From NCBI RefSeq assembly GCF_025165815.1, contig NZ_JAFFZE010000033.1:1-55550 (forward strand): a stretch of 55,550 bases of DNA, in the 5' to 3' direction. Below are positions 4,597 through 7,521 of the stretch, one piece after another. The notes beneath the pieces are model-generated. The model was not told where the DNA came from and ran no database searches. It saw only the letters and a program-made list of their open reading frames with translations. Source of the stretch: Actinophytocola gossypii. GTDB taxonomy: Bacteria; Actinomycetota; Actinomycetes; Mycobacteriales; Pseudonocardiaceae. Position numbers and translations under genes: made by a program. Position 1 is the stretch's first letter. Every line of letters begins with the position of its first letter.

Positions 4597-6990
4597 CTAC
4601 AGTTTGACCAGCGGAACGCTGCCGATCAGCATCAGTCGGATCGTGCCCGCGGTGCCGAAGTCGATCGTGGCGGTGGCGCGCGGGCCGGCGCCGTCGGTGG
4701 CGACGACCGTGCCCAGGCCGTACTTGTCGTGGTTCACCCGGTCGCCGACGTCCAACGACAACGCCGGGGTGTCCTTCCACGCCCGCGCGGGGCCGAAGCC
4801 GGTCTGCGGACCGCCGCCGCCCCTGGCCCGGATCGCGTCCGAACGCCGCGAACCCCAGGTCGGCGCGCTGGGTGCGGAACGCTCCGGTTGCACCCGCCGC
4901 CAGTCGACCAGCTCCGCCGGGATCTCGTCGAGGAACCGGGACGGCGGGTTGGTCATCGGCTGCCCCCACGCGGACCGCACGATCGCGCGCGACAGGTACA
5001 GCCGCCGCTGCGCCCGCGTGATGCCCACGTACGCCAGCCTGCGCTCCTCGGCCAGCTCCACCGGGTCGCCGAGCGCCCGCATGTGCGGGAACACGCCGTC
5101 CTCCCAGCCGGTGCAGAACACCACCGGGTACTCCAGGCCCTTCGCGGTGTGCAGGGTCATCAGCGTGACCACCCCAGAGCCGGCCTCCTCGCCGTCCTCG
5201 GCTCCCGCGTCACCGTCCGGGATCTGGTCGGCGTCGGCCACCAGCGACACCCGTTCCAGGAACGCGGCCAGCGAACCCGGTTCGATCGCTGGCGGCTCCT
5301 CCGGGGCCTCGACGACCTCCTCCACACCGTCGAGGGCGTGCGCGAACTCCCTGGCGACGGTGACCAGCTCGGTCAGGTTCTCCAGCCGGGTGGCGTCCTG
5401 CGGGTCGTCGCTGTCCTCCAGTTCGGCGCGGTAGCCGGTGCGCTCCAGCACCGCCTCCAGCACCTCGGCCACCTCGTGGCCCTCGTCGACCATCGTGCGC
5501 AGGCCGTCGACCAGCTCGACGAAGCCGGCGATGGCGTTGCGGGAACGCGGGTTGAGCAGCGACACCTTGCCGTCGACGGCGTCGCGCAGGGCCGCGTTGA
5601 ACGAGATCCGCTCGCGGTCGGCGTGCGCGGACACGCAGGCCTCCGCGCGGTCGCCGATCCCCCGTTTGGGGACGTTGAGCACGCGGCGCAGGCTCACCGT
5701 GTCCTCCGGGTTGGCGAGTACCCGCAGGTAGGCGAGGGCGTCGCGGACCTCGCGCCGCTCGTAGAACCGGACGCCGCCGACCACCCGGTAGGGCAGGCCG
5801 AGCCGGACGAAGATCTCCTCGAACACCCGGGACTGGTTGTTCGTGCGGTAGAAGACGGCGACGTCCCCGTAGTGGAGGCCGTCGCCGGAATCCATCAGCT
5901 TGTCGATCTCGCCGGCGACGAACGCGGCCTCGTCGTGGTCGTTGTCGCCGACGTAGCCGACGATCTTCTCGCCGTCGCCGAGCGCGGTCCACAGCCGCTT
6001 GTCGCGCCGGTTCGGGTTGCGCGAGATGACGGCGTTGGCCGCGGTCAGGATGGTCTGGGTGGAGCGGTAGTTCTGCTCCAGCATGATCGTGGTGGCCTGC
6101 GGGTAGTCGCGCTCGAACTCGACGATGTTGCGAATGGTCGCGCCGCGGAAGGCGTAGATGGACTGGTCCGCGTCACCCACGACGCAAAGTTCACCCGGTT
6201 CTACACCGTTTTCACCCGTTCCAACGAGTTCGCGGACCAGTGTGTACTGCGCGTGGTTGGTGTCCTGGTACTCGTCTACCAGCACGTGCCGGAACCGGCG
6301 GCGGTAGTACTCGGCGACGTCCGGGTGCCGCTGCAGCAGCTCGACCGTGCGCATGATCAGGTCGTCGAAGTCGAACGCGTTGGCCAGCTCCAGCCGGCGC
6401 TGGTACTCGACGTAGACCTCGGCGGCGCGCCGCTCGAAGTCGTTGGCCGCGGCCTCCTTGGCGTCGGCGGCGACGACCAGCTCGTTCTTGAGGTTGGAGA
6501 TGTGCCCGGCGAGCCCGCGCGCGGTGTACCGCTTCGGGTCGATGTCCAGGTCGCGGGAGACGAGCGTGATCAGCCGCCGGGTGTCGTCGGCGTCGTAGAC
6601 CGAGAAGCTGGACTTCATGCCGAGCGTGGTGGCCTCGCGGCGCAGCACCCGCACGCACATGGAGTGGAACGTCGACACCCACATCGCGTTGGCGCGCCTG
6701 CCGACCAGCTCGACGACCCGCTCACGCATCTCGGCGGCGGCCTTGTTGGTGAACGTGATCGCCATGACCTGGCCGGGGTGCACGTCGCGTTCGGCGAGCA
6801 GGTAGGCGATGCGCCTGGTGAGCACCCTGGTCTTGCCCGAGCCGGCGCCGGCGACCACGAGCAGGGGTGTGCCGGCGTGCTGGACCGCCCGCCGCTGCTG
6901 GTCGTTCAGGTCGGCGAGCAGGTCGGCGGACCGCTTGCGGGGCCTGGCCGGAGCGGGGTTCTGGACGGGGATCTCGAACAGCGCACTCAT
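4597..6990 (-). CDS. pcrA: ATP-dependent DNA helicase, UvrD/PcrA family
   Basis: A 797-residue superfamily 1A helicase of normal length. Visible motifs are the Q-motif region LNDQQRRAVQH, Walker A GAGSGKT (about residues 48-54), AITFTNKAAAEMRERV (Ia), VDEYQDTNHAQY (II), GDADQSIYAFRGA (III), QNYRST (IV), TLHTAKGLEYPVVF (V) and YVGITRAQRRLYLSRA (VI). A C-terminal Tudor-like end (VGDRVNHDKYGLGTVVA) is typical of PcrA and of M. tuberculosis UvrD1. It unwinds DNA 3' to 5' in excision repair and in clearing transcription complexes. It is divergent from the chorismate mutase leader, an arrangement conserved in mycobacteria. Confidence 0.97.
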   Translation of the reverse strand: MSALFEIPVQNPAPARPRKRSADLLADLNDQQRRAVQHAGTPLLVVAGAGSGKTRVLTRRIAYLLAERDVHPGQVMAITFTNKAAAEMRERVVELVGRRANAMWVSTFHSMCVRVLRREATTLGMKSSFSVYDADDTRRLITLVSRDLDIDPKRYTARGLAGHISNLKNELVVAADAKEAAANDFERRAAEVYVEYQRRLELANAFDFDDLIMRTVELLQRHPDVAEYYRRRFRHVLVDEYQDTNHAQYTLVRELVGTGENGVEPGELCVVGDADQSIYAFRGATIRNIVEFERDYPQATTIMLEQNYRSTQTILTAANAVISRNPNRRDKRLWTALGDGEKIVGYVGDNDHDEAAFVAGEIDKLMDSGDGLHYGDVAVFYRTNNQSRVFEEIFVRLGLPYRVVGGVRFYERREVRDALAYLRVLANPEDTVSLRRVLNVPKRGIGDRAEACVSAHADRERISFNAALRDAVDGKVSLLNPRSRNAIAGFVELVDGLRTMVDEGHEVAEVLEAVLERTGYRAELEDSDDPQDATRLENLTELVTVAREFAHALDGVEEVVEAPEEPPAIEPGSLAAFLERVSLVADADQIPDGDAGAEDGEEAGSGVVTLMTLHTAKGLEYPVVFCTGWEDGVFPHMRALGDPVELAEERRLAYVGITRAQRRLYLSRAIVRSAWGQPMTNPPSRFLDEIPAELVDWRRVQPERSAPSAPTWGSRRSDAIRARGGGGPQTGFGPARAWKDTPALSLDVGDRVNHDKYGLGTVVATDGAGPRATATIDFGTAGTIRLMLIGSVPLVKL

Positions 6991-7034
6991 CGCCTGTCAA
7001 CGTTACCGGCAGGCACCGACAGCGCCGGCGCGGC

Positions 7035-7064
7035 TGGACACCGATGGGGCGGTGGTGACAGAAT
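7035..7064 (+). promoter_or_regulatory. Promoter giving a leaderless transcript for the aromatic leader peptide
   Basis: A -35-like TGGACA (7035-7040), an 18-nt spacer and a -10-like CAGAAT (7059-7064) are followed by 7 nt and then the GTG of the leader peptide at 7072. Transcription would therefore start at or next to the start codon. No Shine-Dalgarno sequence is visible. Each hexamer has one mismatch to the vegetative consensus. Confidence 0.6.
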
Positions 7065-7071
7065 CGATCCC

Positions 7072-7134
7072 GTGCGAAACCGCCACTTCGAGTTTTTCTA
7101 CGGGATCCGGACTCCGGCTCCCGTCGTGGCGTAG
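7072..7134 (+). CDS. Phe/Tyr-rich leader peptide upstream of chorismate mutase
   Basis: A 20-codon frame encoding MRNRHFEFFYGIRTPAPVVA, ending at the TAG 7132-7134. Three Phe and one Tyr fall within five consecutive codons (positions 6-10), matching the end products of the pathway whose gene lies 100 bp downstream. The likely start is leaderless (see 7035-7064). The rest of the frame encodes the first arm of a hairpin (7101-7123) that competes with pairing to the downstream terminator-like hairpin. This is the architecture of amino-acid attenuation: ribosome stalling at Phe/Tyr codons would signal charged tRNA shortage. The reading is inferred from sequence only. Confidence 0.75.
   Translation: MRNRHFEFFYGIRTPAPVVA
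7101..7123 (+). promoter_or_regulatory. Pause hairpin within the leader ORF, alternative to an antiterminator
   Basis: CGGGA (7101-7105) pairs with TCCCG (7119-7123), and CCGG (7107-7110) with CCGG (7114-7117), around a 3-nt loop. The same segment, GGACTCCGG (7109-7117), is a perfect 9-nt complement of CCGGAGTCC (7160-7168) in the left arm and loop of the downstream hairpin. The two pairings exclude each other, as expected for an attenuator switch. Confidence 0.6.
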
Positions 7135-7153
7135 CGCGTACCAAGACCACAAC

Positions 7154-7185
7154 GAAGCCCCGGAGTCCTCGGACCCCGGGGCTTC
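7154..7185 (+). terminator. Attenuator hairpin before chorismate mutase
   Basis: A perfect 10-bp stem, GAAGCCCCGG (7154-7163) with CCGGGGCTTC (7176-7185), encloses a 12-nt loop. It lies between the leader peptide and the chorismate mutase start at 7234. No U-run follows, which is usual for high-GC actinobacterial terminators. Its left arm overlaps the 9-nt segment that can instead pair with the leader ORF. Confidence 0.7.
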
Positions 7186-7233
7186 GGCGCACTGGGGCAG
7201 CGGGGCTCCACCGGAGCAGACGAGGATGAGGAC

Positions 7234-7521
7234 ATGCCCCAGAACACCGCCGCCGACGACACCGCGGGAGACGCGGCCGAGGTGGAGATCGACAAGCTCC
7301 GCGAGGAGATCGACTGGCTCGACGCGGAGATCCTGCGCCTGGTGAAACGCCGCGTCGAGGTGTCCAAGACGATCGGCGCGGCACGGATGGCGGCGGGCGG
7401 GCCGCGGATCGTCTACAACCGGGAGATCGACGTGCTGGCCCGGTACCGCGAACTCGGCACCGAGGGCCGCCGGCTGGCGATGGCGCTGCTCAACCTCGGC
7501 CGGGGGCCGCTGGGCCGCTAG
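7234..7521 (+). CDS. Chorismate mutase, AroQ type
   Basis: A 95-residue helical protein with the AroQ pattern: IDKLREEIDWLDAEILRLVK, then RRVEVSKTIGAARM, GGPRIVYNREIDVLARYREL and a short final helix. The length and motifs match the small mycobacterial enzyme Rv0948c (AroQ-delta), which gains full activity in complex with DAHP synthase. It rearranges chorismate to prephenate, the branch to Phe and Tyr. A GAGGATGAGGAC just before the ATG supplies the ribosome site. The upstream aromatic leader peptide and hairpins suggest regulation by Phe/Tyr supply. It is divergent from pcrA. Confidence 0.93.
   Translation: MPQNTAADDTAGDAAEVEIDKLREEIDWLDAEILRLVKRRVEVSKTIGAARMAAGGPRIVYNREIDVLARYRELGTEGRRLAMALLNLGRGPLGR

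What the first reader, a model, noticed from the sequence alone, without database searches (positions are those of the whole stretch)
7035..7233. Leaderless Phe/Tyr leader peptide with switchable hairpins ahead of chorismate mutase
A 20-codon frame (7072-7134) reads MRNRHFEFFYGIRTPAPVVA, with FEFFY codons at its centre. Its promoter hexamers place the transcript start on the GTG. GGACTCCGG (7109-7117) in the frame can pair either with its own hairpin (7101-7123) or perfectly with CCGGAGTCC (7160-7168), which would break the 10-bp hairpin at 7154-7185. Downstream is chorismate mutase, the branch to Phe and Tyr. This is the complete logic of an attenuator for aromatic amino acids. Attenuation leaders are known in actinobacteria for trp and branched-chain genes; an aromatic one for chorismate mutase is to my knowledge not widely described.
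Basis: partly seen in the sequence, partly recalled or inferred. Interest (0 to 1): 0.82.

Follow-up and report, generated by a model that had tools for sequence, protein, structure and literature searches.

The report
Phe/Tyr attenuator before chorismate mutase
A tiny reading frame rich in phenylalanine and tyrosine codons, followed by RNA hairpins that can switch partners, sits before the gene for an enzyme that makes these amino acids and recurs in many related actinobacteria, so it very probably turns the gene up when these amino acids run short.

Summary
In detail: frame, hairpin, alternative pairing and terminator-like stem are where stated, within 1-2 bases. It is not chance: an FFYG-type leader precedes chorismate mutase (CM) at 183 of 189 Pseudonocardiaceae (f1) loci and 23 of 24 loci of genus g47 (Mycobacterium by CM identity), but at 0 of 10 loci of its sister genera. 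A -10 box lies 6-7 nt before the start without Shine-Dalgarno, so it looks leaderless. Hairpin, stem and inner antiterminator helix co-vary; the outer antiterminator is nearly invariant in f1 and differs on both sides in other families. Four frameshifted leaders keep the RNA but lose the peptide tail. The first Phe codon is the rare TTT in 149 of 150 leaders. Related Phe/Trp/Tyr leaders precede DAHP synthase in family f18. Best reading: ribosome-mediated transcription attenuation of CM by Phe (and Tyr), a widely conserved member of a known kind. Untested in vivo; the window's stem lacks a U-run. A 2010 survey lists an ambiguous 'pheA' motif in Actinobacteria that may be this element.

The parts
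7035..7064 (+). promoter-like hexamers TGGACA - 18 nt - CAGAAT
   Evidence: a -10-like hexamer 6-7 nt before the leader start in 146 of 150 distinct f1 leaders
7072..7134 (+). leader peptide ORF, probably leaderless: VRNRHFEFFYGIRTPAPVVA, GTG start, TAG stop
   Evidence: conserved upstream of CM
7093..7101 (+). control codons TTT TTC TAC (Phe Phe Tyr); a further Phe codon at 7087-7089
   Evidence: TTT in 149 of 150 at the first, TAC in 150 of 150 at the third position (a TAY before GG was part of the rule by which leaders were picked)
7100..7124 (+). hairpin A (1:2, protector): ACGGGA.CCGG / CCGG.TCCCGT
   Evidence: covariation; exchanges between families
7109..7117 (+). antiterminator strand GGACTCCGG (element 2), helix B 5' strand
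7122..7131 (+). 5' strand of inner antiterminator helix C
7146..7154 (+). 3' strand of inner antiterminator helix C (ACCACAACG)
7160..7168 (+). antiterminator partner CCGGAGTCC (element 3), also part of the 5' arm of stem D
7153..7186 (+). terminator-like stem D (3:4), no U-run in the window
   Evidence: covariation at the stem base
7234..7521 (+). chorismate mutase gene (relative of Rv0948c)

Best explanation
The 5' end of the chorismate mutase mRNA is a ribosome-mediated transcription attenuator. RNA polymerase starts on the GTG; a ribosome starts at once on the leaderless 20-codon frame. If charged tRNA-Phe (and probably tRNA-Tyr) is plentiful the ribosome passes, hairpin A (7100-7124) forms, element 3 is left to stem D (7153-7186), and transcription ends before CM. 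If Phe is short the ribosome waits on TTT/TTC and covers the 5' arm of hairpin A; element 2 (7109-7117), with inner helix C, pairs with element 3 (7160-7168) before the last arm is made, stem D is late, and CM is transcribed. Shown: sequence features, conservation, covariation, thermodynamic compatibility of the stalled state. Inferred: termination at D, stalling, the order of folding, and the response to Phe/Tyr.
For: Leader by my rule at 183 of 189 f1 loci (150 distinct sequences; some genomes were counted from two collections), 23 of 34 f2 loci, 9 of 12 located loci of other families. Of the six f1 misses, read by eye, L226 and L236 have the leader with fewer aromatic codons, L060, L104 and L246 have the element with a frameshift, L245 is a second CM copy of its genome. 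-10-like box 6-7 nt before the start in 146 of 150, SD-like bases in 1 of 149. Helices A and D on all 87 non-redundant f1 leaders: 97.9% of cells paired, 45 two-sided changes against 8.0 in shuffles, 0 of 500 reach it. Helices B and C: 85.8% paired, 57 two-sided changes against 26.8, 0 of 500. Between families element 2 and its partner differ together: mean duplex energy own against foreign partner, f1 -15.1 against -9.8 (f20 arm), f20 -15.4 against -9.9 (f1 arm), f2 -16.9 against -9.5 (f1 arm). With a ribosome on the first or second Phe codon the antiterminator is the best fold before arm 4 is made in 139 and 138 of 141 f1 leaders. The target is the branch enzyme to Phe and Tyr (pathway from general knowledge).
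Against: No expression data. The window's stem D has one T in the 8 nt after 7186 and the terminator scan is negative; in 141 f1 leaders 3.5 T in 8 nt follow the GC core (background 0.77), but part of these pair within the stem. Equilibrium folding does not by itself give the switch: without a ribosome and before arm 4, the antiterminator is preferred in 86 and hairpin A in 55 of 141; in the window the antiterminator wins there too; the complete window RNA folds stem D even with the ribosome on Phe; and a ribosome on the stop codon leaves element 2 free. Helix B has no two-sided change within f1. For B and C together, two measures are not above the shuffles (pairs changed on both sides 71 of 500, pair types 120 of 500 reach the observed value), and helix C is paired in 71.6% of cells only; its main exchange (G-C 52, A-U 28) may be one old event. 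Some foreign partners pair as well as the own one: f1 element 2 with f2 arms -14.2, f3 with f2 arms -16.6 against own -15.3; own pairing is weak in f33 (-4.6) and f47 (-8.0); f20, f3, f33, f47 are 3, 2, 1, 1 sequences. Four of 23 g47 leaders have no stem D by the rule (L150, L154, L156, L249). The leader is absent in 10 of 10 loci of other f2 genera and in one g47 genome, L247.
Confidence: 0.86

Rival explanations
1. The leader peptide is a nascent-chain arrest peptide (conserved RTPAP tail) that stalls the ribosome itself, rather than a plain sensor of charged tRNA.
For: The tail GxRTPAPV is very conserved in f1.
Against: L204, L222, L237 and L242 have another frame after FFYG (PGLRRP, Y[RW]IRCP) while hairpin A and element 2 can still pair, by eye, with a G-U or a bulge in some; g47 has RSAVPV or RPAVPV, f20 has RPAG; the tail codons are the helix strands, so the RNA explains them.
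Confidence: 0.05
2. Translation attenuation or Rho-dependent control: the same ribosome-sensing switch, but stem D does not end transcription by itself; it affects the CM start or a Rho site.
For: Stem D has no U-run in the window; cys leaders of mycobacteria lack obvious terminators (passage of PMC1262725) and are said to act on translation in M. smegmatis (passage of PMC13236596).
Against: Stem D ends about 35 nt before the GAGGATGAGG stretch ahead of the CM start; T-rich stretches follow the stem core in relatives.
Confidence: 0.12
3. A structured RNA or protein-binding leader unrelated to translation, with a chance frame.
For: Strong RNA conservation and covariation.
Against: Start spacing and FFY codons with a rare TTT are conserved; no Rfam match at the gathering score.
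Confidence: 0.03

Closest known systems
'pheA' motif of Weinberg et al. 2010 (PMC2864571; only a table row and other passages seen)
   Same: Actinobacteria; judged probably cis-regulatory and not a riboswitch; pheA is, from memory, the COG name of chorismate mutase
   Different: marked ambiguous as an RNA, no Rfam number, no mechanism in the passages seen; its alignment (additional files) was not at hand, so identity with this element is unknown
aroR-aroF attenuator of Corynebacterium glutamicum (Neshat et al. 2014, not held; seen through passages of PMC11802643 and PMC4046766)
   Same: actinobacterial leader with Phe-Tyr-Phe codons before an aromatic pathway gene; responds to Phe, not Tyr
   Different: target is DAHP synthase, not chorismate mutase; its sequence was not compared here
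pheL-pheA attenuator of Escherichia coli (named in a passage of PMC11802643; details recalled)
   Same: Phe leader peptide with terminator and antiterminator before a chorismate mutase enzyme
   Different: fused CM-prephenate dehydratase; no Rfam leader family matched here
ilvB1 attenuator of Mycobacterium tuberculosis (passages of PMC13236596)
   Same: actinobacterial uORF with terminator and antiterminator
   Different: branched-chain codons, other gene, terminator with U-tract
Phe/Trp/Tyr leaders before type I DAHP synthase in family f18 (found here)
   Same: aromatic codons then YG, hairpin, GGACCCG/CGGGTCC (in one CGGCCCG/CGGGCCG) antiterminator, strong stem; a -10-like box 7-9 nt before the ATG in four, by eye
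   Different: also Trp codons; other gene; the family is not named by these tools

Membership tests
ribosome-mediated transcription attenuator | short leader ORF with clustered codons for the end product | tested here: met
   FFY 139, FYY 6 of 150 distinct f1 leaders; leaders were picked by at least 3 Phe/Tyr codons in 6 and a TAYGG, so the share is high in part by rule; the 6 misses of 189 loci are told
ribosome-mediated transcription attenuator | mutually exclusive 1:2, 2:3 and 3:4 pairings placed so that a stall frees 2 | tested here: met
   equilibrium folds that do not fit are told under evidence against
ribosome-mediated transcription attenuator | 3:4 is an intrinsic terminator with U-tract | tested here: inconclusive
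   strong stem, no U-run in the window; T-enriched tails in relatives
ribosome-mediated transcription attenuator | downstream gene makes the sensed amino acid | tested here: met
   chorismate mutase
ribosome-mediated transcription attenuator | expression rises on starvation for that amino acid | not testable with these tools
   no expression data
Rfam 15 families (leader families included) | match at the gathering score | tested here: not met
   0 matches in the window; a permissive search of 6950-7350 gives 9 weak ones, best F6 at 21.5 bits against a gathering score of 46
'pheA' motif of Weinberg et al. 2010 | same consensus RNA | not testable with these tools
   only its table row was seen; it has no Rfam number
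C. glutamicum aroR-aroF attenuator | homologous leader RNA on DAHP synthase | not tested
   its sequence was not at hand; the target gene differs
nascent-chain arrest peptide | conserved peptide tail independent of the RNA | tested here: not met
   four leaders with another frame in the tail

The most novel reading that the evidence does not exclude
One old, leaderless aromatic attenuator (aromatic codons, then YG, then switchable hairpins) is spread over much of the class and serves two genes: Phe/Tyr codons on chorismate mutase, Phe/Trp/Tyr codons on DAHP synthase. In Mycobacterium and Pseudonocardiaceae it sets the amount of the enzyme whose activity depends on contact with DAHP synthase, and the near-invariant rare codon UUU tunes the sensor.
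Probability: 0.45. Interest if true: 0.65.

Novelty: new member of a known kind. Interest (0 to 1): 0.5.

Why it matters
A 2005 survey of actinobacterial amino acid leaders reported no conserved RNA structures before phenylalanine or tyrosine operons (passage of PMC1262725), and a 2010 survey lists only an ambiguous 'pheA' motif. Here an attenuator-like leader is seen before chorismate mutase at 183 of 189 f1 loci and 23 of 24 g47 (Mycobacterium) loci read. It gives a testable control point for the Phe/Tyr branch in actinomycetes and mycobacteria, and a large natural set for the study of leaderless attenuation, including why a rare UUU codon is kept.

Tried and rejected
Pattern search over 296 genomes of the class (looser): 30 genomes had a match, the reversed control pattern matched in 41 by my count of the table, so outside CM the pattern is at chance; of the matches read, L111, L118 and L123 are the CM leaders. 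Rfam: nothing at the gathering score. A free hairpin search after the stop mixed up stem D with other stems and was replaced by the anchored search, which left 15 of 182 leaders without a called stem D (11 of them outside g47). DAHP synthase type II (L269), prephenate dehydratase (L270) and a second, type I DAHP synthase (L353) of the window's own genome show no Phe/Tyr leader by the scans, and the covariance model R1 finds only this place on the + strand, its two reverse-strand hairpins and one weak short match: no wider regulon seen in this genome. R1 in the class: 225 of 394 genomes gave a match at E <= 0.1, many of them plainly chance; of 20 places that I chose to open among the stronger hits, 10 had an aromatic leader (9 before a DAHP synthase-like ORF, 1 before CM) and 10 had none with a fitting gene, L316 among these with a frame of three aromatic residues. 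Alignment A1 holds 67 of 87 non-redundant f1 leaders; I had left out 20 with indels or a shifted register. The repeat with all 87 (A2) gave the same picture: A+D 98.7% then 97.9% paired, B+C 86.9% then 85.8%. Of 238 CM loci, 3 could not be located by tblastn, 20 had no leader by my rule, 33 were duplicates. The 15 loci of other families and the 24 of 25 g47 places were my choice. Papers: no CM leader named in the listings except the 'pheA' row found on opening PMC2864571; these searches cover open-licence papers only, and supplements could not be looked up, so a description elsewhere is possible.

Full report
Observation. The window 7035-7233 holds a sigma-70-like promoter, a 20-codon GTG frame with Phe-Glu-Phe-Phe-Tyr, a hairpin, a strong stem and a perfect 9-bp alternative pairing between them, then chorismate mutase. 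The divergent gene on the minus strand is pcrA, so stem D is not needed as its terminator. The window's genus is Actinophytocola: contigs of the same-genus genomes G031, G066 and G115 have the lengths of named Actinophytocola contigs (69,203, 63,479 and 212,725 bases, kinship).

Names. f1 is Pseudonocardiaceae by the genera of the named loci (from general knowledge); one of them, L036, is titled Rhodococcus rhodnii but lies on a contig of the same length as one of f1 genome G093. The CM of L149 (genus g47) is identical to the solved Rv0948c protein at 69 of 77 positions by my count of the alignment, so I take g47 to be Mycobacterium and f2 its family.

Conservation. I collected 238 CM loci. 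An FFYG-type leader was found at 183 of 189 f1 loci (150 distinct sequences), 23 of 34 f2 loci and 9 of 12 located loci of other families (15 fetched). All 23 f2 leaders are in g47 (23 of 24 read there, of 25 g47 places); the 10 loci of other f2 genera have none. Typical forms: FFYGTRTPAPVIA (f1), RFFYGYRSAVPVV (g47), FVFTYGIRPAG (f20), RFFYYGTGSPAAV (f3).

Leaderless start. In 149 of 150 distinct f1 leaders a -10-like hexamer lies before a GTG (116) or ATG (33) start; its distance is 6 nt in 106 and 7 nt in 40, and SD-like bases are seen in 1 of 149. The script chose the start with the help of the -10 box (allowed distance 4-10), so the tight spacing is in part a result of the choice; the absence of an SD is not.

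Codon choice. The first Phe codon of the cluster is TTT in 149 of 150 leaders; the second position is TTC 93, TTT 46, TAC 6, others 5. In 33 ORFs of the window TTT is 4 of 286 Phe codons (these ORFs were picked by high GC3, which favours TTC), and 0 of 24 in pcrA. A rare codon is thus kept where the ribosome should wait. Whether this slows decoding or serves the RNA is open.

Pairings. On all 87 non-redundant f1 leaders, hairpin A and stem D are paired in 97.9% of cells with five pairs that change on both sides; all but one of the five measures exceed every shuffle and that one is reached by 3 of 500. For B and C, percentage, cells changed and covariation score exceed all shuffles; number of changed pairs and pair types do not (71 and 120 of 500 reach them). 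Between families helix B differs on both sides: GGACTCCGG/CCGGAGTCC in f1, CGGTCCGCGG/CCGCGGTCCG in g47 (with mismatches in many), CGGCCCG/CGGGCC in f20. The cross-family energies mostly favour own partners, with exceptions told above. Hairpin A shows G-C to C-G and C-G to T-A exchanges between families. Cells are not independent events, and the structure was drawn from these sequences.

Switch. In the window, with 26 nt around a Phe codon blocked, the best fold before arm 4 exists is the antiterminator (helices B and C); the complete free RNA folds into hairpin A plus stem D. Over 141 f1 leaders (150 less 9 without a called stem) the stalled fold has the antiterminator in 139 (first Phe) or 138 (second Phe). 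Against a simple equilibrium view, the unblocked RNA before arm 4 prefers the antiterminator in 86 of 141, the complete window RNA folds stem D even when stalled, and a ribosome at the stop leaves element 2 free. The logic therefore rests on the order of folding during transcription, as is usual for attenuators, which was not modelled here. The 26-nt footprint is the value used in PMC13236596 (passage).

Against an arrest peptide. In L204, L222, L237 and L242 the frame after FFYG differs and gives PGLRRP or IRCP while the RNA can still pair (by eye for the pairing). The RNA, not the peptide tail, seems to be under selection.

Siblings. A covariance model of the element found, besides CM leaders, leaders such as MRTAFWFWYGDGP and MQRNFWRFYGYRP in family f18 before type I DAHP synthase; four of the nine downstream proteins were checked by NCBIfam, four more by the search or as its query, one (L310) by its beginning only. 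Their element 2 pairs with the stem in the same way in the four folded. Of the 30 best-scoring DAHP synthase loci (104 of 296 genomes have a match), 17 have such a leader by my rule: 14 of 14 in f18 and 3 of 4 in f30; none in f10 (6), f15 (3), f22 (1), f8 (1, only 82 bases upstream) or the window's own genome (1). This fits the aroR-aroF attenuator of C. glutamicum (passages), whose sequence I did not have.

Literature. Passages only were seen of PMC11802643, PMC1262725, PMC4046766, PMC13236596, PMC4633059, PMC10937400 and PMC2864571. [quoted passage not shown] PMC2864571 lists in its Table 1 a motif 'pheA' in Actinobacteria, ambiguous as RNA, probably cis-regulatory, not a switch, without Rfam number; this may be the present element, since pheA is (from memory) the COG name of chorismate mutase. 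The words chorismate and Rv0948c do not occur in the main texts of PMC13236596 and PMC4633059. Figures and supplements were not seen. Neshat 2014 and D'Halluin 2023 are not held and were not read.

Verdict. A real, widely conserved aromatic attenuator on chorismate mutase, by sequence evidence; a new member of a known kind, perhaps noted before as an unexplained motif. The mechanism is inferred from sequence only.

Noticed in passing
L304-L311, L313 (family f18): Leaders with Phe, Trp and Tyr codons (e.g. MRTAFWFWYGDGPESVRHLTLR) and the same hairpin logic precede type I DAHP synthase.
   Followed up: partly
L246 (genome G057, one-contig assembly): The leader frame differs and reads through the whole attenuator for 54 codons, ending on a TGA that overlaps the CM start GTG; if real, attenuation is replaced by coupled translation.
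   Followed up: no
7093-7095 and the same codon in relatives: The first control codon is TTT in 149 of 150 leaders though TTT is 4 of 286 Phe codons in high-GC3 ORFs of the window.
   Followed up: partly
L150, L156 (genus g47): Leader kept but stem D lost or deleted before CM: possible loss of the attenuator in some mycobacteria.
   Followed up: no
L142, L145, L146 (genus g48): CM has a long upstream region without the Phe/Tyr leader but with a similar GGTCTG...GGTGAA...GGTAAC stretch in all three, by eye; perhaps another control.
   Followed up: no
downstream of stem D in relatives, e.g. L028: The 3' arm of stem D can also pair with a GGGGTCCG stretch further downstream, a possible further alternative stem.
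   Followed up: no
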